Positions 1-12,894 of a stretch of DNA of 17,397 bases are shown here, one piece after another. Position 1 is the stretch's first letter. Each line of letters starts with the position of its first letter. The translations under genes were made by a program, and so were the position numbers. The DNA comes from Chloroflexota bacterium (GTDB lineage: Bacteria; Chloroflexota; Dehalococcoidia; SHYB01; JACPQI01): NCBI GenBank assembly GCA_016190545.1, contig JACPQI010000198.1:1-17397 (forward strand). The letters run 5' to 3'. The notes under the pieces are model-generated. The model was given only the letters and a program-made list of their open reading frames with translations, was not told the DNA's origin and did no database searches.

Positions 1-240
<240 letters not shown>

Positions 241-251
241 ACCGAGTAATC

Positions 252-331: not shown

Positions 332-556
332 TTACTTTTGCTCGTACAGCTTCACAACACGGACGGTCCCCGGAGGGGCCGCCTGAACGCACAGGTCGCA
401 GAGGGTGCATTCATCGACGTTCTCTTCCCGGATGCGCAGCTTCTGGTCTTTCTCTTGAGCGAAGATATCGACGGGGCATACTTCCGCAAGCTTCTTGACC
501 AGGTCAGGCTGGGCAGCGACCTTAGCATCTACCTCGATACGTATAAACATGCCCAT
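332..556 (-). CDS. Small single-cluster [4Fe-4S] ferredoxin-like protein
   Basis: About 74 residues. With the start chosen here the candidate iron-sulfur ligands are C27 (in EVCPVDIF) and C50, C53, C56 (in CTLCDLC). This is the second-cluster half of a bacterial 2[4Fe-4S] ferredoxin: the distal CP cysteine is kept, but the position that would serve the first cluster reads AAPPG, so one [4Fe-4S] cluster is predicted. FixX-type proteins have a comparable layout. Start choice: the ATG at 565 directly abuts the AGGAGG, so the ATG at 556 (9-base spacing) is preferred. The Shine-Dalgarno overlaps the stop codon of the preceding ligase gene, which suggests translational coupling. It is the last gene of the hydratase-lyase-ligase operon. 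Its redox partner is not visible, so its role there is unknown. Confidence 0.85.
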   Translation of the reverse strand: MGMFIRIEVDAKVAAQPDLVKKLAEVCPVDIFAQEKDQKLRIREENVDECTLCDLCVQAAPPGTVRVVKLYEQK

Positions 557-565
557 CGTAGCCAT

Positions 566-571
566 CCTCCT
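566..571 (-). promoter_or_regulatory. Ribosome-binding site that decides the ferredoxin start
   Basis: A full AGGAGG overlaps the TAG stop of the upstream ligase alpha gene (572-570). It touches the ATG at 565 with zero spacing but stands 9 bases before the ATG at 556, which favours the second ATG as the start. Confidence 0.7.
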
Positions 572-1463
572 AGAGCCGCCGCTTGACTAGCCCTGGGATC
601 TCAGATATCCCTTCGGCCACCAGAATGCCTGATTCTTGCAGCAGCCGGATCTTCTCTGTTGCGGTGTCTGACTTGCCTTCCACGATGGTCCCGGCGTGCC
701 CGAACCGCATTCCCGGCATCTTGTCCATGAAGCGCCCGGCCATGAAGGCGACGATGGGCAGCCGGGTGTTGTGCTCTCGTATGTGCCGAGCAAGCTGGGC
801 CTCCATGGGGCCGCCCGGCTCGGAGTAGATGACGATGGCTTTGGTCTCCGGGTCTTTTTCGAATAGCGGGAGCAGCTCGGCGTAGGTGTTGCCGATGATA
901 GGGTCGCCCCCGATGCTGATGGCGGTGCTCTGCCCCAACCCCGCCGCTGTGAGGGCGTTGCATATCTCCGTGGTCATCCCGCCGCTGCGGGACATGACCC
1001 CGACCGCGCCGGGCGCGAAGGCCTTGCGCGTGTCTGCCGCCGTCCCCCCGATCCCTCCCATTTTGGCCTTGCCCGGCGAGATGATGCCAAGGGTGTTCGG
1101 CCCGATGATGCGAGCGCTCTTCATGTTCGCGATCTCGATGAACTCGGCGACCTCGCCCCTGGGTATCCGCTCCGTGACCACGACGATGAGTTTGATCCCG
1201 GCGTCCAGCGCCTCCAGGACGGCGTCCCGGGCGAAGGCCGGAGGCACGACGACGACGGAGCCATCCACGCGTGTCTGCTCCGTGATCTGACGCACGGTGT
1301 CGTAGACCGGGACCCCATACACATCTCGTCCTTTTCGACCGGGGGTGACGCCGCCTACGACTTTGGAGCCGTAGTCCAGGCATTCCCTGGTCATGCTCAC
1401 CGCTTCCCGGCCGGTGATCCCCTGAATGATAAACGCAGTCTGTTTGTCTACGAGGATGGACAT
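570..1463 (-). CDS. Acyl-CoA ligase (NDP-forming), alpha subunit, SucD/MtkB-like
   Basis: 297 residues, the normal length for the alpha subunit of succinyl-CoA or malate-CoA ligase. The N-terminal CoA-binding Rossmann domain shows QGITGRE and GGVTPGRKG. The ligase domain has IGGDPIIG and the phosphohistidine loop RFGHAGTIV, with H256 as the predicted phosphorylated residue. Divergent points: the usual GPNCPG reads GPNTLG, the usual SRSGTL reads SRSGGM, and the IGEIGG loop is YSEPGG. The SRSGGM form recalls ATP-citrate lyase. Start: the ATG at 1463 follows AAGGAG inside the end of the beta gene, one base after its stop. An upstream in-frame ATG at 1508 lies inside the beta gene and was rejected. 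Context with a CitE/Mcl-type lyase suggests malate, citramalate, mesaconate or citrate rather than plain succinate as substrate; this is inference. Confidence 0.88.
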   Translation of the reverse strand: MSILVDKQTAFIIQGITGREAVSMTRECLDYGSKVVGGVTPGRKGRDVYGVPVYDTVRQITEQTRVDGSVVVVPPAFARDAVLEALDAGIKLIVVVTERIPRGEVAEFIEIANMKSARIIGPNTLGIISPGKAKMGGIGGTAADTRKAFAPGAVGVMSRSGGMTTEICNALTAAGLGQSTAISIGGDPIIGNTYAELLPLFEKDPETKAIVIYSEPGGPMEAQLARHIREHNTRLPIVAFMAGRFMDKMPGMRFGHAGTIVEGKSDTATEKIRLLQESGILVAEGISEIPGLVKRRL

Positions 1464-1464
1464 G

Positions 1465-2670
1465 TTATGCTCCTTGCATCTTGGCTGCCGCCCGCCGGGC
1501 CGCCTCATCCATGGAGACGGAGCGGTCGACGTAGTCTACCCCGTACTTCCTGAGGATTTTGAATCCTTCCTCCTCCCAGGAACCGGGGATGCGAAAGACG
1601 GCGATTTTCTCCGCAGGGTCGTGGCCGGCCTCCACCACGGCTTTGATGACGCCGCGGGCCACGATGTCCACTCGGGTGTTGCTGACCACATTCATCATGA
1701 CCGCTATCTTCTTTACCCCAGGCTTGGAGAGGATGAGTTTGGTCAGCCCGTAGGCCTTGCGTACACTGGGGTTCCCGCCGATTTCGCAGTAGTTGGCGGC
1801 GCGGCCCCCATGCTTGCGGACGGCGTCGAACAGGGTCAGGCTGCCGCCGCCGGCGCCGATGATGAGGCCCAGGTCGCCGTCGAACTCGACGACGCGACCC
1901 GCCACTCCGCGCGTGTCGACAGCATCCACTTTCATCCCGGCGACCTCGAACGGCGTTGGCGGGCGGGCCTGCCGCACGTCTTCCGCCCCCATGCCAAGCT
2001 CAGCCAGGAGGGAAGAGTGGCGGGTCCGGGCTTCCTCCTCCATGTCTATGTGGCAGTCCAGGCAGACCACATTCCCGTTCTGCAACTGGGCCAAGGGGTT
2101 GATTTCAGCGAGGGTCAAGCTGTATTGACGGAACAGGTTCACCAGGCGGACCAAGATGGGTGTGAGGCGGGTCAATTCGTTTCCGGTGATGCCTAGTGAA
2201 GCGACAGTCTCCTTGGCTTTGTAATCGGAGAAGGGGAGCACGTTTGATATGTGGACGCGGGCCAGGTGCTTGGGGTGCTTTTCGGCGACCTCTTCGATGT
2301 CGATCCCGCCCATGTCGCTGAAGAGGACCACCGGCCTTTTGGCCAGGGCATCGTAGGTGACGCCGAGGTAGTACTCCTTGGCGACCGGCGCTTTGGCTTC
2401 CACCAGGACAGAGCGCGGCAACTGGCCGCTGATGGGCAGCTTGAGGATGGCGGCAGCCGCGTCCCGGGCCTGCTCCGGCGTGTCGGCGAACTTCACTCCT
2501 CCCGCTTTCATGCGGCCACCGCTCAGCACCTGGGACTTCAGCACGATGGGGCCGCCGATCTCTTGGGCTTTCTTCTCCGCTTCGTCCGGCGTTTGGGCCG
2601 TTCCGCCTTTCGGCAGCGGCAGCCCGGCCTTCGCCAAGAGGTTCTTTGCCTCAAACTCGTAGAACCGCAT
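1465..2670 (-). CDS. Acyl-CoA ligase (NDP-forming), beta subunit, SucC/MtkA-like
   Basis: 401 residues with an N-terminal ATP-grasp domain and a C-terminal CoA-ligase domain. Family marks are the opening MRFYEFEAKNLLAKAG, the GGRMKAGGVKF loop (51-61), EYYLGVTYD (99-107), GGIDIEE (121-127) and AEINPL (188-193). The C-terminal domain departs from ordinary SucC: where SucC usually has an NGAGLAM loop and a following NFLDVGG, this protein has IGAGGGSLTLFDA (271-283) and ANYCEIGGNPS (292-302), a form I associate with ATP-citrate lyase. The ATG has an AAGGAGG site 6-7 bases upstream, and the gene sits 25 bases after the lyase. It should work with the alpha subunit, 1 base downstream, to form a CoA thioester with NTP hydrolysis. 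Exact substrate is not readable from sequence. Confidence 0.88.
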   Translation of the reverse strand: MRFYEFEAKNLLAKAGLPLPKGGTAQTPDEAEKKAQEIGGPIVLKSQVLSGGRMKAGGVKFADTPEQARDAAAAILKLPISGQLPRSVLVEAKAPVAKEYYLGVTYDALAKRPVVLFSDMGGIDIEEVAEKHPKHLARVHISNVLPFSDYKAKETVASLGITGNELTRLTPILVRLVNLFRQYSLTLAEINPLAQLQNGNVVCLDCHIDMEEEARTRHSSLLAELGMGAEDVRQARPPTPFEVAGMKVDAVDTRGVAGRVVEFDGDLGLIIGAGGGSLTLFDAVRKHGGRAANYCEIGGNPSVRKAYGLTKLILSKPGVKKIAVMMNVVSNTRVDIVARGVIKAVVEAGHDPAEKIAVFRIPGSWEEEGFKILRKYGVDYVDRSVSMDEAARRAAAKMQGA

Positions 2671-2695
2671 GTTCCCTCCTTGGAAGAGCAGCCCC

Positions 2696-3730
2696 TTAGG
2701 CGATCCGGCGCATCATCTCGAGAATGTCGTACCCGGTGACCTCTTTGGACTTGGCCGCCTGGGCAGCCAGGTACTCCGGGTCCACCTTGCCGGCCTGGAC
2801 CGCTTTGGCCAGGAGCATGAGCTTCCCTTTGATGGTAGCCTCATCGTGGAACTCCCCCGTCTCCGGGTCAGCCAGGGCGCCGCCGCCTAGCTTGTGATAA
2901 ATATCGACCGCACGCTTGGCGGACTTGATCTGTTCATCGCTGGGGGTAAAGCACTCGTTCGCAATCTCGGCCTGTTGGGGGTGAATGACCCAGGTGCCGT
3001 CCATGCCCAGGCTGGCGACCTCCTGGTTCTTGGCCCTGAGGGCCTGTTTGATTTTCTCTGCATCCGCCTCGGAAGCGTCCTTCCGAATGATCTCCAGGAA
3101 TGCGTTATCGATGGCATGAAGGCCGGCGGCCTTGGCGGCCACCGCCGTGGCCTGTTTCGCGTAGTGGAAGTTCTTGTTCTGGTCCTTGACCATCTCAGGG
3201 ACTCCCATGGCCGCCGAGAAGTCGGCGATGCCAAAGATGAGTCCAACCATTCGGTCGGAGGCTGCTCCAATCTTGTAGGCGTTGGTCAGCCCCAGGGGGG
3301 TTTCGATGAGGGCCTCAATCATGACGCGGGTCTTCCAGCCGCCCTCTCGCTCGAGGCTGTCAAGCAACGTTGCGACGTAGACGATTTCGCTGGGGTCGTT
3401 CACCTTGGGAAGAATGATCCCATGAAAGCGGTCCGGCGCTCCCAGCATGATGGCTTGCATATCGCCGAGGAAGAACTTGGACTTGATGTTGTTGGGGCGA
3501 ATCGTTATCACCCGGTGTCCGAAGTCCACGGTATTCAGGGCCTCTACCATTGTCTTGCGGGACTGCTCCCCCTTGAACTCATAGGGGCAGGCGTCTTCGA
3601 AGTCCGCCATAATGTGGTCCACCGGCGCCTTGGCTGCATTCTGGTGCATCTTCAGCGTGTGGCACGGGTAGGTGAGCTCAGTTCTGGGAACAACAAACCG
3701 TGTGACTCCTTTGGCGTTGATGACAAACAT
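2696..3730 (-). CDS. CitE/HpcH-HpaI family lyase, malyl-CoA / beta-methylmalyl-CoA / citramalyl-CoA lyase type
   Basis: 344 residues, close to Chloroflexus-type Mcl length. It is a TIM-barrel lyase that reversibly cleaves a 3-hydroxyacyl-CoA into acetyl- or propionyl-CoA plus glyoxylate or pyruvate. Seen in order: acidic motif MADFEDA (41-47), substrate arginine in ITIRPN (75-80), ILPKV (106-110), E143 in IETPLG and D170 in FGIADFSAAMG (predicted Mg2+ ligands), and DGTWVIHPQQAE (244-255). A C-terminal stretch of about 60 residues past the barrel fits the lid found in malyl-CoA lyases. The ATG is preceded by AGGAGG. It lies between the mesaconyl-CoA-type hydratase and the ligase genes, which supports the CoA-ester lyase role over the ACP-linked citrate lyase beta chain. 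Which hydroxyacyl-CoA is used is open. Confidence 0.87.
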   Translation of the reverse strand: MFVINAKGVTRFVVPRTELTYPCHTLKMHQNAAKAPVDHIMADFEDACPYEFKGEQSRKTMVEALNTVDFGHRVITIRPNNIKSKFFLGDMQAIMLGAPDRFHGIILPKVNDPSEIVYVATLLDSLEREGGWKTRVMIEALIETPLGLTNAYKIGAASDRMVGLIFGIADFSAAMGVPEMVKDQNKNFHYAKQATAVAAKAAGLHAIDNAFLEIIRKDASEADAEKIKQALRAKNQEVASLGMDGTWVIHPQQAEIANECFTPSDEQIKSAKRAVDIYHKLGGGALADPETGEFHDEATIKGKLMLLAKAVQAGKVDPEYLAAQAAKSKEVTGYDILEMMRRIA

Positions 3731-3850
3731 GCTCTCCTCCTTTTCAACAATGTGCCATCTGGGCTGGCGCCGCCTCGAGTTCCCAAGGATGCTCGGAGTG
3801 CCCGCAGGCCCGCATTATCGCGCTTCAATGAGGGGGCAGCGGCAGCACCC

Positions 3851-4813
3851 TCACATTCTCTTTGTGGGCACAGCGATAAAGTTGTCCAACGTTAACACTT
3901 CAACCGTATCGCCTTTGAACTTGTCACGTTCCTTCTCGGCCACGGGTCGCTCAGCAAACAGCCGCAGCCGCACGACTTCCAAGCCGGGCCTGTCTTTTGC
4001 CTGCCATGTGCCCAGGACTTCGTAGCCCGCCTTGACCTTCTGGCCTGGGTAGGTGGGAGCGGTATGGCGGCCTGTGTTCCAGCCCAGGTGTAAATGCCAG
4101 GGCAGCGCCCGGGACAGCCGCGAAAAGGCCGCTGAAATGATGGCGCCGCCGTACACCAGGTGGTCGTCCTGGAAGTGGACCTTGGCGTTGTTCATCGTCA
4201 TGACAGGGATCTGCGTCGCCAAGATGATGTCGATCTCCTGCTCCTCCGGGTGCAGGTACCGCGTGCCGTGGGCGAGGGTGGCCAGGGTGTTTGCCGGCGC
4301 GGGCCTGGCCGCAGGGATGTGGAGTTCGTCCAGCGATAGCTCGCGGCTGATGGCGGGGATGCTCTCGTGCTGGTCCGGCACCCGGCCCGCGTCCTGGTAG
4401 ACCATTACCCAGCGCTGGTACTCCAGCACTCGCTCGCCGGAGCCGTTCTGCCCCCAGGTCCGCACGTAAACGATGCCGCGCTGCGGCCCCTTCCCTTGCT
4501 TCCCCGTGATCTCCGAGAAGGCATGCACCATCTCGCCTTCTTGCAGGGGTTTCAGGAACCGGAGCCGCGCATACTCCAGGTTGGCCTGAGCATTGTAGGA
4601 GATGTCGTGGACGGAGAGGCCGAAAACGGTGTGGAAGAGAAAGAGGGGGTGGACGGTCTTGCCGGACGGAGGCGCGTAGGCCTGGTTCTGGTCTTTCGTC
4701 AACTCCCAATAGTGGCGGTGCCGCTGCGGGGTGACGAGAACCGCCCCATGGTCCAACTTCTCCCCAATAACAAAGTCCTGGAAATACTTGGTGGCTTTCG
4801 GCAGGAATTGCAC
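3851..4813 (-). CDS. MaoC-type (double hot-dog) hydratase, mesaconyl-CoA hydratase-like
   Basis: 320 residues with two hot-dog halves. The N-terminal half has the block FHTVFGLSVHDISYNAQANL (61-80) followed by YVRTWGQNG and VLEYQRWVMV. The C-terminal half carries the hydratase-type NNAKVHF (208-214, H213 likely catalytic), LVYGGAIIS and NTGRHTAPTYPG. From memory these blocks match mesaconyl-CoA hydratases of the 3-hydroxypropionate bicycle and ethylmalonyl-CoA pathway, which interconvert mesaconyl-CoA and beta-methylmalyl-CoA. The start is GTG at 4813, chosen because GAGGAG stands 5 bases upstream and a promoter lies just before it. It is the first gene of the operon and its product would feed, or be fed by, the lyase next door. 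An itaconyl-CoA or mesaconyl-C4-CoA hydratase activity (giving citramalyl-CoA) is also possible. Confidence 0.82.
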   Translation of the reverse strand: MQFLPKATKYFQDFVIGEKLDHGAVLVTPQRHRHYWELTKDQNQAYAPPSGKTVHPLFLFHTVFGLSVHDISYNAQANLEYARLRFLKPLQEGEMVHAFSEITGKQGKGPQRGIVYVRTWGQNGSGERVLEYQRWVMVYQDAGRVPDQHESIPAISRELSLDELHIPAARPAPANTLATLAHGTRYLHPEEQEIDIILATQIPVMTMNNAKVHFQDDHLVYGGAIISAAFSRLSRALPWHLHLGWNTGRHTAPTYPGQKVKAGYEVLGTWQAKDRPGLEVVRLRLFAERPVAEKERDKFKGDTVEVLTLDNFIAVPTKRM

Positions 4814-4845
4814 ACCCGCTCCTCGCCTGGAAGATGCCGTCGGAA

Positions 4846-4874
4846 AGCATAGGTGAAAGCGGCGGTTGGGTCAA
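4846..4874 (-). promoter_or_regulatory. Sigma-70-type promoter of the hydratase-lyase-ligase operon
   Basis: On the minus strand, TTGACC (4874-4869) and TATGCT (4851-4846) are separated by 17 bases. The predicted start site is about 25 bases before the GTG of the hydratase gene, a leader just long enough for the GAGGAG ribosome-binding site. It makes the five downstream genes one transcription unit separate from the CoA-transferase operon. Confidence 0.75.
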
Positions 4875-5162: not shown

Positions 5163-5837
5163 CTAGCCCAACGTCATCTCTTTGACCGTCCGGGGAATGC
5201 GCAGCGTCGCCTCTGTGATGGACTGGACCATTTCGGGCGTCCAGCCCGGCGCAACCTCCAGCAGCGTCATCCCCCGCCTATCGATGGCGATGACGGCCAC
5301 ATCCGTCACCACCAAGTCCACGCAGCGCCGCGCCGTCAGGGGGTAGGTGCAGCGCTTGACCAGGCGCGGAGTCCCTTTCTTATCGGTGTGTTCCATGACA
5401 ACGATGAGCGTGTTCGCGCCCACGGCGATGTCGGCAGCGCCGCCCACACTGCCGATGCCGCGTGAGGGGATCATCCAGTTAGCCAGGTCGCCTTTCTCCG
5501 AGACTTGGAAAGAGCCGAGGACCGCGAAGTCCACGTGTCCGCCGCGCAGCATGGCGAATGACGTGGCCTGGTCGCACACGGACCCGCCTGGCCCCAGGCG
5601 GGCTGGCCGCCCCAGGGCATCCACCACGTCCGGTTCCGCTTCTTCCAGTGTTTCCACGCCCTGAATACCCAAGGCCCCGTTCTCGGTTTGGAAGGTGACC
5701 GCCTCCTTATCCGGGATGAAGGTGGCTACCAGGCTGGGGATGCCTACCCCCAGATTCGCGACGGTGCCACGGGGCAGTTCGCGGGCCACCCGCATGGCCA
5801 TGACCTCTTGCGTCAGCCGTGGCGGTAGCTCCATCAT
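5163..5837 (-). CDS. scoB: 3-oxoacid CoA-transferase, beta subunit
   Basis: 224 residues, typical for ScoB/AtoA-type beta subunits. These heterodimers move CoA from succinyl-CoA or acetyl-CoA to a 3-oxoacid or short fatty acid through a glutamyl-CoA intermediate. The catalytic glutamate lies in TENGALGIQG, and further family blocks are LGVGIPSLVA, SFAMLRGGHVDFAVLG, VSEKGDLANWMIPSRG and VMEHTDKKGTPRLVKRCTYP. The start overlaps the alpha gene's stop by four bases (ATGA), so the two subunits should be translationally coupled. A hairpin follows. Substrate is not fixed by sequence; the symbol follows the best-known family member. Confidence 0.92.
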   Translation of the reverse strand: MMELPPRLTQEVMAMRVARELPRGTVANLGVGIPSLVATFIPDKEAVTFQTENGALGIQGVETLEEAEPDVVDALGRPARLGPGGSVCDQATSFAMLRGGHVDFAVLGSFQVSEKGDLANWMIPSRGIGSVGGAADIAVGANTLIVVMEHTDKKGTPRLVKRCTYPLTARRCVDLVVTDVAVIAIDRRGMTLLEVAPGWTPEMVQSITEATLRIPRTVKEMTLG

Positions 5838-6541
5838 GACCCGCCCTCCGTCTTGACGATGCGGTCCACGAAGATGTACGGCGTCATGACCGTGTCCGGG
5901 TCAAGCTCTCCGTACGGCACAATCCTGTCCACCTCGGCGATGGTCACCCGGCCAGCCATGGCCATGAGGGGATTGAAGTTGCGCGCCACCCGGTGGTAGA
6001 TGAGGTTGCCTTTGGTATCCGCCACTGAGGCCCGCACCAGGGCGAAGTCCGCCTTCAAGGGAAGCTCTAAGAGATAGGTCTTGCCCTGCGCGCGCACCGT
6101 CCGTTTCCCAGTAGCGAAGAGCGTGCCTACGCCTACGGGCGTGAGAAAGCCGCCCAGCCCTGCGCCGCCGGCCCGGATCCGCTCCGCCAGGGTGCCTTGC
6201 GGCACCAATTCCACCTCCAATGTCCCCTCTTTGAACTGCTGCTCCACGGCGTTGACCATGGATGGGCGTCGCGGCACGGCAAAGCTGGCGATGAGCTTCT
6301 TGGCCATGCGGTTCGTGATGATCTGGTAACCGTCCTCCCAGTTGAGCTTGTCGCCCAGCATCTGGTTGGCGATGACCGTCAGGCCCTTGGGGCCGCGCGC
6401 CACCAGGGCTTTGACCAGGCCGACGGGCGTGCCCACGCCCGCGAACCCGCCCACCATGATGGTGGCGCTGTCCTGGACGTCACGGACCGCCTCGGCCAGG
6501 CTGGCGCAAATCTCCCCCCGTGTTGGTTGATTGACGATCAT
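5834..6541 (-). CDS. scoA: 3-oxoacid CoA-transferase, alpha subunit
   Basis: 235 residues, full length for a ScoA/AtoD-type alpha subunit, which supplies the CoA-binding part of the transferase. Seen: the glycine-rich loop MVGGFAGVGTP, the block QGTLAERIRAGGAG followed by GFLTPVGVGT, then ARNFNPLMAMA and the C-terminal ELDPDTVMTPYIFVDRIV. The ATG at 6541 has an AAGGA site about 9 bases upstream. It lies 30 bases after the nfo stop with no promoter seen between, so it is probably transcribed with nfo. The neighbouring but separately promoted mesaconyl-CoA-type operon raises the possibility that this transferase activates a dicarboxylate there, but family features point to an ordinary 3-oxoacid or short-chain acid transferase. 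Confidence 0.92.
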   Translation of the reverse strand: MIVNQPTRGEICASLAEAVRDVQDSATIMVGGFAGVGTPVGLVKALVARGPKGLTVIANQMLGDKLNWEDGYQIITNRMAKKLIASFAVPRRPSMVNAVEQQFKEGTLEVELVPQGTLAERIRAGGAGLGGFLTPVGVGTLFATGKRTVRAQGKTYLLELPLKADFALVRASVADTKGNLIYHRVARNFNPLMAMAGRVTIAEVDRIVPYGELDPDTVMTPYIFVDRIVKTEGGS

Positions 6542-10839: not shown

Positions 10840-12894
10840 TTACGACGCCTTTGCAGGCGCTCCTTTTCCACCCCGCCTGCCGCGTATCCAGCGGACCGGC
10901 GCTGTCGCAAAGCGCGCCGGCTTAGCCAGCTCGCCCTTTTCCCAGGCCACCAGCAGTTGCGCGGCGATGAAAATGGAGCTGTACGTCCCTGTAATAACGC
11001 CTACCAGGAGCACCAGCATGAAGTCGCGTAACGTCGCGCCGCCGAAAAGCAAGATGGCAACGACGGTGAAGACCAGGGTGAGGCTGGTGCTGATGGAGCG
11101 GGCCGCCGTCTCCACGATACTCACGTTCACGACGGTATCGAAGCTGGTGGAGACACCCCGCGCCATGTTTTCCCGCAGCCGGTCGAACACCACGATGGTG
11201 TCATGCACGCTGAAGCCCACCACCGTCAGAATGCCGGTGATGAACATCAGGTTCACCTCGGCGCCTATGGCCTTGCCCAGCAGGGAGAAGGCGCCTAACG
11301 TGATGATCACGTCATGGCCCAGCGCGACCAGGGCCGCCATGCCCCAGCGGAACGGCCGCGGCATGCGCCGGAAGGCCCACGTGATGTACAGCACGATGCC
11401 AATGGTGGCCACCACCACGGCGATAGCGGCGATACGCGTGGTCCGCGCCGCCACCAACGGCGATACGGAGTTGAACTCCAGGGTGGGGATGTTGCCGAAA
11501 GCCGCCTCCAGGCCATTGAGCAGGTTGGCTTTTTCGCCGGGGAAGATGACCTCGTAGGTGTTGAGGGCGCCCGGCTTCAAGATGAGGTTGGGGACCGGGA
11601 GAGCCGACACTAAGGGGCGAAGCTGTTCCAGCGTCAGGTCCCGCTTGAAGGTCACGTCGTAGACAGCCACACCGGTCCGCTGCACTGTGAAGGCGCTTTT
11701 CTGCATGAGCTGTTCCACCGCATCCCGGACTTTCTGTATATCAGCAGGTGCAGGGAAGGTGACATCAGCGGCAGTCTCATTGACTTGAGTAAAAGCTACC
11801 TCTCCCTCGGCGAGTGGTGTGAGGGCCTGCTTCAGGTCCGCTTCAGGGAGCGCAAATTGCGTCTGGATGCGGTAGCTATTCGCCTGGCTCCTGGGCTCCA
11901 CCGTGACCACGCCAGGAGGCAGTTCGGCCAGCTTCTCGCTCAGTGCCGCTTCGCTTACAGGACGCTTGTAACGCACCTCAAAGCTACTTGGCTCACTTCC
12001 CTGCCGCAACAGAAAGTCGTTCTGCAGCGGAGTGGAGATGGCGGTCCGCAGCGCTTCCTGGTCCACTGTCTCCGGGAAGCTCAGTGTGTAGGTGCGGTTG
12101 TCGACGGCCTGCACCTGGCCCTTCCCGCCAGCGATGCCGGAGATAGCGCTCTTGACCAGCGTCTCTTGTACCGGGCGGTCGAAGGAGACTTTGAACGTGT
12201 TTCCTTCCTGCGGCTCCAGCGCGAACTGCTCCGGGTCCACCTCCGCCAGCTTCTGGCGTAGCGTCTCCGGCACAGTGCCCTTGGCGGTGATGAGATAGAC
12301 ATCCTGGCCGCTTTGCTCCAGCGTGTAGTCGTCGCCCAGGACGGCATGGAGTTGCTCCCGGATGCTTGCCTCCGGCACAGCTTTCTTGAGAGTGAGGGTC
12401 TGCTGGAGCGTGCCAGCCGGACTCATCGCAAAATCGTCATTGATCAATGTGTGGAGCCGGTCCTGGAAGGCCCTGGCCGTAAGGTTCTGCTTGAAGCGGA
12501 TAGCTAGCGTATCGCCGCTGGCCTTTTCGGCTGTGCCGTTATCCGGTGCCAGTGCAGCAACAGCGCTTTCCAGGTTTGTCTGGGCGGATGGGTCAATTTG
12601 CCCTTCGACTAGGGCCCGTGTCTGGACGACGAAACGATTGCCTCCAGATGTTTGGACAATGGCCTCTGGGTAGCCAAGCTCCGCCAGCTTCGCCCGCAGG
12701 TCAGTCTGACTGACCTGCTTCTCGAACTGGGCTTCCATGATGGCGCCGCTCTCGAAGTCGATGCCCACCTTTAATCGGGGCGGGATCAAGAGAGACACTA
12801 CAGCGACGGCGATTACGATGAAGCTGAAAGCGAAGTACCAGTACCGCTTGCCAACGAAGTCCAGGATGGTTTTGCGTTCGCCAGAAGGTCGCAT
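10840..12894 (-). CDS. secF: Protein translocase subunit SecF with greatly expanded extracytoplasmic repeat domain
   Basis: 684 residues, more than twice the usual roughly 300. With SecD it uses the proton-motive force to help pull secreted proteins out of the SecYEG channel. The core is intact: TM1 (about 18-38), GIDFESG (44-50), then TM2-6 from about 486 to 650, with the RND-type motif FSVHDTIVVFDRLREN (561-576) and SIVETAARSISTSLTLVF (592-609). Between TM1 and TM2, residues about 125-475 are a run of about ten diverged repeats of about 35 residues, each helix then two strands, with a pattern like V-x-E-x-x-L-x-x-x-L, then f-x-l, then Y-x-V-x-F. This replaces the single short P4 domain. The ATG comes 3 bases after the secD stop. 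The frame is continuous with no sign of gene fusion at DNA level. Confidence 0.95.
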   Translation of the reverse strand: MRPSGERKTILDFVGKRYWYFAFSFIVIAVAVVSLLIPPRLKVGIDFESGAIMEAQFEKQVSQTDLRAKLAELGYPEAIVQTSGGNRFVVQTRALVEGQIDPSAQTNLESAVAALAPDNGTAEKASGDTLAIRFKQNLTARAFQDRLHTLINDDFAMSPAGTLQQTLTLKKAVPEASIREQLHAVLGDDYTLEQSGQDVYLITAKGTVPETLRQKLAEVDPEQFALEPQEGNTFKVSFDRPVQETLVKSAISGIAGGKGQVQAVDNRTYTLSFPETVDQEALRTAISTPLQNDFLLRQGSEPSSFEVRYKRPVSEAALSEKLAELPPGVVTVEPRSQANSYRIQTQFALPEADLKQALTPLAEGEVAFTQVNETAADVTFPAPADIQKVRDAVEQLMQKSAFTVQRTGVAVYDVTFKRDLTLEQLRPLVSALPVPNLILKPGALNTYEVIFPGEKANLLNGLEAAFGNIPTLEFNSVSPLVAARTTRIAAIAVVVATIGIVLYITWAFRRMPRPFRWGMAALVALGHDVIITLGAFSLLGKAIGAEVNLMFITGILTVVGFSVHDTIVVFDRLRENMARGVSTSFDTVVNVSIVETAARSISTSLTLVFTVVAILLFGGATLRDFMLVLLVGVITGTYSSIFIAAQLLVAWEKGELAKPARFATAPVRWIRGRRGGKGAPAKAS

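What the first reader, a model, noticed from the sequence alone, without database searches (positions are those of the whole stretch)
332..4874. Self-contained operon for activation, hydration and cleavage of a CoA-linked dicarboxylate, with a private ferredoxin
One promoter (4846-4874) drives mesaconyl-CoA-hydratase-like, malyl-CoA-lyase-like, NDP-forming ligase beta and alpha, and a one-cluster ferredoxin, tightly spaced. Known pathways use parts of this set: malate-CoA ligase plus malyl-CoA lyase in the serine cycle; mesaconyl-CoA hydratase plus Mcl in the 3-hydroxypropionate bicycle, ethylmalonyl-CoA pathway and methylaspartate cycle; and CoA-transferase, hydratase and lyase for itaconate. 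I do not know a described pathway with exactly this five-gene order. A plausible scheme is free acid (mesaconate, itaconate, citramalate or malate) + CoA + NTP to acyl-CoA, hydration to a methylmalyl- or citramalyl-CoA, then cleavage to acetyl- or propionyl-CoA plus glyoxylate or pyruvate, or the reverse for carbon assimilation.
Basis: partly seen in the sequence, partly recalled or inferred. Interest (0 to 1): 0.7.

Follow-up and report, generated by a model that had tools for sequence, protein, structure and literature searches.

The report
Malate–CoA ligase, lyase and ferredoxin operon
Five genes from an uncultured Chloroflexota-like bacterium look like the end of a known acetate-using pathway (the ethylmalonyl-CoA pathway), but where the known version simply splits malyl-CoA they carry an unstudied enzyme that could save that energy as ATP, followed by a small ferredoxin gene whose role is unknown.

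Summary
The five minus-strand genes are real: Mch-like hydratase, malyl-CoA-lyase-family protein, SucC-like, SucD-like, one-cluster ferredoxin. The named promoter is near chance level. The five-gene order was seen only here, but a four-gene core (lyase, ligase beta, alpha, ferredoxin) recurs: ferredoxin follows the ligase in 22 of 22 genomes with sequence there; an HpcH/HpaI lyase lies nearby in 25 of 29. The ligase is neither succinyl-CoA synthetase (10 of 11 genomes have a separate one) nor the serine-cycle malate–CoA ligase; its beta acid loop resembles citryl-CoA synthetase. Partner lyases are of two types: the window's, which in Binatota sits with methylsuccinyl-CoA dehydrogenase and a MeaA-like mutase, and the Chloroflexus malyl-CoA lyase type. 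One close relative has crotonyl-CoA carboxylase/reductase, lyase, ligase, ferredoxin, dehydrogenase, hydratase and mutase in one cluster. Best reading: the tail of an ethylmalonyl-CoA pathway in which malyl-CoA becomes malate through an ATP-conserving ligase instead of the known thioesterase. Substrate, direction and ferredoxin role are inferred; the window's own genome is not available. New variant of a known kind.

The parts
3851..4813 (-). Divergent double-hotdog hydratase of the mesaconyl-CoA hydratase (Mch) type, 320 aa, GTG start
   Evidence: PF19315 38 bits; 108 bits to PDB 8hgn 'beta-methylmalyl-CoA dehydratase' (residues 9-292) and 89 bits to 4e3e. Keeps NNAKVHF, but the YGGH His is Ala, so activity is uncertain. 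No homologue above 34% identity.
2696..3730 (-). [quoted passage not shown]
   Evidence: 117 bits to 5ugr, 108 to 4l9y, 92 to 4l7z. The seven active-site positions checked are D43, E45, D46, R78, E143, D170, D296. D296 is Asp as in lyases, not the Glu of the malyl-CoA thioesterase group (PMC3832036 passages).
1465..2670 (-). NDP-forming acyl-CoA ligase beta subunit (SucC-like, ATP-grasp), separate clade; predicted malate-CoA ligase beta
   Evidence: Below the cut-offs of NCBIfam succinate-CoA ligase beta (264.5 vs 370) and malate-CoA ligase beta (196.5 vs 604). The split {SCS, Mtk, Azospirillum pair} | {CCS, L131, L130, window clade} has UFBoot 100, and so has the branch to the window clade.
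570..1463 (-). Ligase alpha subunit (SucD-like); conserved His in FGHAG (the phospho-His of SCS, recalled)
   Evidence: SRSGGM in 24 of 24 clade rows, with a short insertion before it, EPGG, and FGHAG in 23 of 23 with data; succinate- and malate-CoA ligase rows have SRSGTL-like, EIGG and MGHAG. Position numbers are one too high because the query began one codon early.
332..565 (-). Single-cluster ferredoxin, 77 aa (or 74 aa from the ATG at 556)
5163..6541 (-). Two-subunit 3-oxoacid CoA-transferase (B 5163-5837, A 5834-6541), 349 nt upstream; possible feeder of acetoacetyl-CoA, membership in the operon not shown
   Evidence: TIGR02428 256.6 bits (cut-off 243.55) and TIGR02429 253.6 (cut-off 128.5); no hit to it in the 32 related loci.

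Best explanation
The lyase, ligase and ferredoxin are the exit end of an ethylmalonyl-CoA (EMC) type pathway. Inferred chemistry: the hydratase makes beta-methylmalyl-CoA from mesaconyl-CoA; the lyase cleaves it to propionyl-CoA and glyoxylate and condenses glyoxylate with acetyl-CoA to malyl-CoA; the SucCD-like ligase turns malyl-CoA + ADP (or GDP) + Pi into malate + CoA + ATP (GTP), where Rhodobacter uses a malyl-CoA thioesterase. The ligase is a clade distinct from succinyl-CoA synthetase and serine-cycle malate-CoA ligase, and its beta acid loop resembles citryl-CoA synthetase. The ferredoxin is a constant partner of the ligase; whether it carries electrons for the methylsuccinyl-CoA dehydrogenase step or is a structural or regulatory subunit is unknown. 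Shown here: gene content, conserved linkage, placement in trees, active-site residues, co-occurrence. Inferred: substrate, direction, ferredoxin role.
For: In 30 genomes examined (L012 and L152 are one locus, G144's gene lies on two contigs) the ferredoxin comes after alpha in 22 of 22 with sequence there (8 cut by contig ends; in L008, L009 and L166 an alpha/beta hydrolase gene lies between); an HpcH/HpaI lyase lies within 1.5 kb upstream in 24 of 29 and just downstream of the ferredoxin in 1. Of the 24, 15 are the window's lyase type; of the other 9, 7 were placed in the tree and carry the Chloroflexus-group Asn, and the one searched scores 447 bits to 4l7z. L148 holds Ccr (553.6 bits, cut-off 378.55), CitE-like lyase, lyase, ligase, ferredoxin, acyl-CoA dehydrogenase, MaoC hydratase, mutase and SDR in one cluster; L149 is similar, Ccr 573 bits on the other strand. 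L010, L012 and L151 hold mutase, hydratase, Mcd-type dehydrogenase, lyase, ligase (mutase partial in L151, ferredoxin cut off in L012); the L010 hydratase scores 333 bits to 8hgn. In Binatota L031 the same lyase lies between a dehydrogenase best matched by 8ciw (2S)-methylsuccinyl-CoA dehydrogenase (400 bits) and a mutase 62.8% identical to Ruegeria 'protein meaA'. Among 148 class genomes, ligase 23: Ccr in 16 of 23 against 20 of 125 (Fisher 5e-7); Mcd in 13 of 23 against 3 of 125 (3e-10); malate synthase in 2 of 23 against 22 of 125 (not significant). Isocitrate lyase over cut-off in 0 of 11 module genomes (weak partial hits in 6), malate synthase in 1 of 11.
Against: No enzyme was assayed. 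No genome is held for the window, so Ccr, mutase and dehydrogenase are not shown in its organism. Seven of 23 ligase genomes lack Ccr over cut-off, among them relatives whose ligase is 77-78% identical to the window's (G001, G002, G011), and G001 has malate synthase; of the first 11 module genomes 5 have Ccr over cut-off. 12 of 23 lack the window's lyase type. In L017 the Ccr-like gene scores below cut-off (281 bits) and has Asp and Thr where the CO2 pocket has Glu and His (pocket residues recalled). The Fisher values treat related genomes as independent; genome completeness is not told. The cluster mutase is a large subunit without a B12 domain and could be methylmalonyl-CoA mutase. Mcd and the window's lyase also occur together without the ligase (G036, G066). 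Tepidiforma (Dehalococcoidia) isolates cannot use acetate as sole carbon source (PMC10284905 passage); whether they carry this ligase was not tested. The window hydratase lacks one His conserved in Mch.
Confidence: 0.56

Rival explanations
1. Same enzymes, opposite direction: malate + CoA + ATP to malyl-CoA, then acetyl-CoA + glyoxylate, as in the serine cycle (with EMC regenerating glyoxylate) or the 3-hydroxypropionate bicycle.
For: The known serine-cycle operon has the same order, lyase - malate-CoA ligase beta - alpha (L142 Phyllobacterium, L144 Aminobacter). Some partner lyases are of the Chloroflexus 3HP-bicycle type. The reactions are reversible in principle.
Against: None of the class V aminotransferase, D-glycerate dehydrogenase and glycerate kinase genes that flank mtk in L143/L144 was noticed beside this ligase, though they were not used as queries. 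Glycerate 2-kinase in 2 of 23 ligase genomes (16 of 125 others), PEP carboxylase in 0 of 23 (8 of 125 others): rare throughout the sample, so only weak evidence; PEP carboxykinase could replace the latter and was not tested. 3HP-bicycle key enzymes were not searched.
Confidence: 0.22
2. The ligase activates another C4-C5 dicarboxylate (citramalate, itaconate, mesaconate or methylsuccinate) for catabolism to acetyl-CoA + pyruvate or propionyl-CoA + glyoxylate.
For: CitE/RipC-like second lyases neighbour the module in L001, L003, L148 and L162; CaiB-type CoA-transferases in L017; MaoC proteins with RipB/Ich similarity. The relatives nearest the window lack Ccr over cut-off.
Against: The lyases next to the ligase are mostly malyl-CoA-lyase types, and the four lyases tested score 94-172 of the 375-bit RipC cut-off. 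CoA-transferases would make a ligase redundant for activation.
Confidence: 0.13
3. Two-step ATP-dependent citrate cleavage: citryl-CoA synthetase-like ligase plus CitE-like lyase.
For: The beta subunit shares loop indels and motifs with citryl-CoA synthetase, 6hxq.
Against: At the column matching ACLY Arg379 (citrate-binding; recalled) citryl-CoA synthetase has Arg, but 0 of 27 window-clade sequences with data do (26 Ile, 1 Val). The adjacent lyases are malyl-CoA-lyase types.
Confidence: 0.04
4. A duplicated or divergent succinyl-CoA synthetase with incidental neighbours.
For: Family membership and catalytic His as in SCS; the SucCD + ferredoxin pairing recalls sucCD near a 2-oxoglutarate synthase ferredoxin in Sulfurovum (L146).
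Against: Separate canonical SCS over cut-off in 10 of 11 genomes; distinct acid loop and alpha motifs in all clade rows with data; lyase nearby in 25 of 29.
Confidence: 0.05

Closest known systems
Ethylmalonyl-CoA pathway, Rhodobacter/Methylobacterium type (Ccr, Ecm, Mcd, Mch, Mcl1, malyl-CoA thioesterase Mcl2)
   Same: Same kinds of enzyme around the module in relatives: Ccr, mutase, methylsuccinyl-CoA dehydrogenase, mesaconyl-CoA hydratase, malyl-CoA lyase
   Different: The lyase belongs to another family and an ADP/GDP-forming ligase stands where the known pathway has the thioesterase (PMC3832036, PMC2948502 and PMC8307300 passages); an added ferredoxin
Serine-cycle mcl-mtkA-mtkB (malate-CoA ligase with malyl-CoA lyase)
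   Same: Gene order lyase-beta-alpha and probable reaction pair
   Different: Ligase in another clade (UFBoot 100), other alpha motifs, different neighbours, ferredoxin follows
Citryl-CoA synthetase of Hydrogenobacter (6hxq; organism recalled) / ATP-citrate lyase
   Same: Beta acid-loop indels GGNP...TK.ILSKPG...N-TR-D; alpha SRSGGM/FGHAG resembles ATP-citrate lyase (recalled)
   Different: Lacks the second Arg; partner lyase is HpcH/HpaI, not a citrate-synthase-like citryl-CoA lyase (recalled)
Chloroflexus malyl-CoA lyase and 3-hydroxypropionate bicycle
   Same: A Chloroflexus-type lyase precedes the same ligase in part of the relatives
   Different: Chloroflexus activates malate by a succinyl-CoA:malate CoA-transferase (recalled); the window's lyase is another family
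Itaconate degradation RipABC
   Same: CoA activation, MaoC hydratase, CitE-like lyase
   Different: RipA is a CoA-transferase (recalled); scores far below RipB/RipC cut-offs

Membership tests
Ethylmalonyl-CoA pathway | Crotonyl-CoA carboxylase/reductase in the same genome | tested here: inconclusive
   16 of 23 ligase genomes, in the same cluster in L148 and L149; not testable in the window's own genome
Ethylmalonyl-CoA pathway | (2S)-methylsuccinyl-CoA dehydrogenase and mesaconyl-CoA hydratase beside the lyase | tested here: inconclusive
   Met in relatives L010, L012, L151 (homology to 8ciw and 8hgn); the window itself has only a divergent hydratase
Ethylmalonyl-CoA pathway | Malyl-CoA thioesterase releasing malate | tested here: inconclusive
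   Not searched genome-wide; the 49 lyases kept in the alignment (window included, of 167 collected) all carry Asp, not the thioesterase Glu
Malyl-CoA lyase (CitE-like superfamily) | Arg, Mg-binding Glu/Asp, Glu-Asp pair and lid Asp | tested here: met
   D43, E45, D46, R78, E143, D170, D296; roles from PMC3832036 passages
Malyl-CoA lyase (CitE-like superfamily) | Activity on malyl-CoA or methylmalyl-CoA | not testable with these tools
   Needs purified enzyme
Serine-cycle malate-CoA ligase (NF010647) | Beta subunit over family cut-off | tested here: not met
   196.5 of 604 bits; separate clade
Succinyl-CoA synthetase (TIGR01016/TIGR01019) | Both subunits over cut-off | tested here: not met
   251.9 of 375.55 and 292.8 of 353.2 bits
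Citryl-CoA synthetase | Beta acid-loop indels of CCS type | tested here: met
Citryl-CoA synthetase | Second Arg for the extra carboxylate (by analogy to ACLY Arg379, recalled) | tested here: not met
   0 of 27 window-clade sequences with data
Mesaconyl-CoA hydratase | Conserved residues of both hotdog halves | tested here: inconclusive
   NNAKVHF kept, YGGH His is Ala
Bacterial [4Fe-4S] ferredoxin | Four Cys ligands per cluster and ferredoxin fold | tested here: met

The most novel reading that the evidence does not exclude
A three-subunit, iron-sulfur-associated malate-CoA ligase akin to citryl-CoA synthetase that closes an energy-conserving ethylmalonyl-CoA pathway in Chloroflexota, with the ferredoxin coupling or gating ligation by redox state.
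Probability: 0.2. Interest if true: 0.75.

Novelty: new variant of a known kind. Interest (0 to 1): 0.52.

Why it matters
If right, a set of uncultured Dehalococcoidia/SAR202-type bacteria, few of which have malate synthase (2 of 23 ligase genomes), assimilate C2 units through an EMC pathway that recovers one NTP at malyl-CoA instead of losing it to a thioesterase. It also names a ligase clade for which I found no assay and which automatic annotation would probably call succinyl-CoA synthetase, and a ferredoxin that stays with an enzyme that has no redox step, which is a clear biochemical puzzle.

Tried and rejected
Only-SCS idea: rejected in relatives. Citrate cleavage: disfavoured by the missing Arg. 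Promoter: near chance. Homologues of the window hydratase: none close. Ferredoxin by sequence against PDB: only weak hits, best LctC of a lactate dehydrogenase-ETF complex, E 0.0065, its four Cys aligned; not enough to assign an ETF role. Foldseek gave no match with E at or below 0.001. An HMM built from the lyases found none in L153, L158, L160 or L164. Mechanical ORF calling on G+C-rich loci gave wrong-strand calls, so gene orders rest on tblastn. Dropped rows: L007 and L011 (lyase followed by a ligase cut at the contig end) were not; ligase rows under 300 residues were left out of the tree; four ligase hits at 36-41% identity were not counted as the clade; lyases were thinned from 167 to 49 before the tree.

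Papers: the ten searches listed nothing that by title or start of abstract describes this gene set; several lists were cut (12 of 28, 145, 37 and 384 papers), and only open-licence PMC text is held. Seen as passages only: PMC3832036, PMC8262859, PMC2948502, PMC8307300, PMC10284905; PMC9088039 was searched and held none of the terms. All other papers were seen as listings only.
Full report
What is there. The window's minus strand holds, in order, an Mch-like hydratase (4813-3851), an HpcH/HpaI lyase (3730-2696), a SucC-like beta (2670-1465), a SucD-like alpha (1463-570) and a 77-residue ferredoxin (565-332). Spacing is tight from the lyase on (25, 1 and 4 nt), with 120 nt between hydratase and lyase and 349 nt between an upstream two-subunit CoA-transferase and the hydratase. 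A CIRCE-like repeat and, by eye, a groEL start lie downstream. The proposed promoter is a 9-of-12 match among 3 sites in 7 kb, against 1.4 +/- 1.2 expected.

Conservation. A genome-contig scan with the lyase kept the best 80 of 90 loci (57-80% identity), titled mainly Chloroflexota/Dehalococcoidia/SAR202, Binatota, Dadabacteria and Deltaproteobacteria. The ligase follows the lyase in part of the Chloroflexota loci and in L043. A search of 148 genomes of the class of G001 gave 27 ligase genomes at 1e-60; I counted 23 (59-78% identity) as the window clade and dropped four at 36-41%. In 30 genomes examined the ferredoxin comes after alpha in all 22 with sequence there; 8 are cut by contig ends; in L008, L009 and L166 an alpha/beta hydrolase gene lies between. 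Of 29 with upstream sequence, 24 have an HpcH/HpaI lyase within 1.5 kb upstream on the same strand (15 of the window's type, 9 other), 1 has it downstream of the ferredoxin (L162), and 4 have none nearby (L153, L158, L160, L164).

The ligase. It is not the organism's only succinyl-CoA synthetase in relatives: 10 of 11 genomes carry a separate canonical beta subunit over cut-off; in G008 only this one was found, and the assembly's completeness is not told. It scores far below the malate-CoA ligase model. In an unrooted tree, SCS, serine-cycle Mtk and an Azospirillum pair are split from citryl-CoA synthetase, L130, L131 and the window clade with UFBoot 100, and the window clade stands on its own branch with UFBoot 100. 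Its beta acid loop has the same indels as citryl-CoA synthetase; its alpha subunit has SRSGGM (24 of 24), a short insertion, EPGG and FGHAG (23 of 23 with data) instead of SRSGTL-like, EIGG and MGHAG. At the column of ACLY Arg379 (recalled as citrate-binding) 26 of 27 have Ile and 1 Val, where citryl-CoA synthetase has Arg. I read this as a site for a hydroxy-dicarboxylate rather than succinate or citrate; that is inference.

The lyases. The window lyase keeps the seven active-site positions taken from PMC3832036 (passages), with Asp rather than the thioesterase Glu, but forms a family set apart from the other lyases in the tree by a long branch (UFBoot 100). A second lyase type, directly upstream of the same ligase in other relatives, is Chloroflexus-type: 447 bits to 4l7z for the one searched, with the Asn that PMC3832036 reports as fully conserved in that group in 7 of 7 placed in the tree; two further ones (L155, L159) were not placed. 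Pairing of one ligase with two malyl-CoA-lyase types is the strongest argument for malyl-CoA/malate as the shared metabolite.

The pathway. In Binatota L031 the window's lyase family sits between a dehydrogenase, on the other strand, whose best PDB match is (2S)-methylsuccinyl-CoA dehydrogenase (400 bits) and a mutase 62.8% identical to Ruegeria 'protein meaA', itself near ccrA (MeaA as ethylmalonyl-CoA mutase is recalled). Binatota were already proposed to use the EMC pathway (PMC8262859 passages). In Chloroflexota L010, L012 and L151 the order is mutase, hydratase (333 bits to 8hgn for L010), Mcd-type dehydrogenase, lyase, ligase, with ferredoxin where not cut. L148 has Ccr, a MaoC hydratase, CitE-like lyase, lyase, ligase, ferredoxin, acyl-CoA dehydrogenase, MaoC hydratase, mutase and SDR in one cluster. 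In the 148-genome sample the ligase co-occurs with Ccr (16 of 23 against 20 of 125) and Mcd (13 of 23 against 3 of 125); malate synthase is in 2 of 23 against 22 of 125, not significant. Relatedness inflates these P values.

Against it. The window's own genome is not available; its near ligase relatives G001, G002 and G011 lack Ccr over cut-off and G001 has malate synthase, while G084 and G088 (76% and 73% identity) have Ccr beside the module, so the window's lineage may or may not be complete or may use another entry. Mcd and the window's lyase type also sit side by side without this ligase (G036, G066). The window hydratase is divergent and lacks one His. Direction is not shown: malate formation fits scarce malate synthase and the EMC neighbours, yet the serine-cycle operon has the same gene order, and serine-cycle markers are rare in the whole sample (glycerate 2-kinase 2 of 23 against 16 of 125, PEP carboxylase 0 of 23 against 8 of 125), so their scarcity says little.

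Verdict. A real, conserved module: probable malate-CoA ligase with malyl-CoA lyase and ferredoxin, in an EMC-type context in several relatives. A new variant of a known kind; substrate and direction need assays.

Noticed in passing
window 5163-6541 (-): 3-oxoacid CoA-transferase subunits A and B just upstream; could feed acetoacetyl-CoA into an EMC-type pathway.
   Followed up: partly
window 10840-12894 (-): By eye, a SecF-like protein of 684 aa, much longer than usual SecF (recalled, about 300 aa), with what look like repeated segments in the insertion.
   Followed up: no
window 205-245: CIRCE-like inverted repeat (TTAGCACTC-N9-GAGTGCTAA) ahead of what by eye is a groEL start, directly downstream of the operon.
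   Followed up: no
L047: Record titled Klebsiella pneumoniae MAG carries a lyase of this family (61% identity); the label looks doubtful.
   Followed up: no
L130 (G029), L131 (G056), L145 (Azospirillum plasmid): Further SucCD-like ligases outside SCS and Mtk in the tree; L145 lies beside tripartite tricarboxylate transporter genes.
   Followed up: partly
L146 3001-7110: Sulfurovum sucCD followed by a 4Fe-4S ferredoxin and 2-oxoglutarate synthase alpha: a possible model for how the ferredoxin came to sit beside a SucCD-like pair.
   Followed up: no
L148, between the MaoC hydratase and mutase genes: Two small ORFs (118 and 142 aa) with a DTGS motif like retropepsin-type aspartyl proteases (motif recalled), inside an EMC-type cluster.
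   Followed up: no
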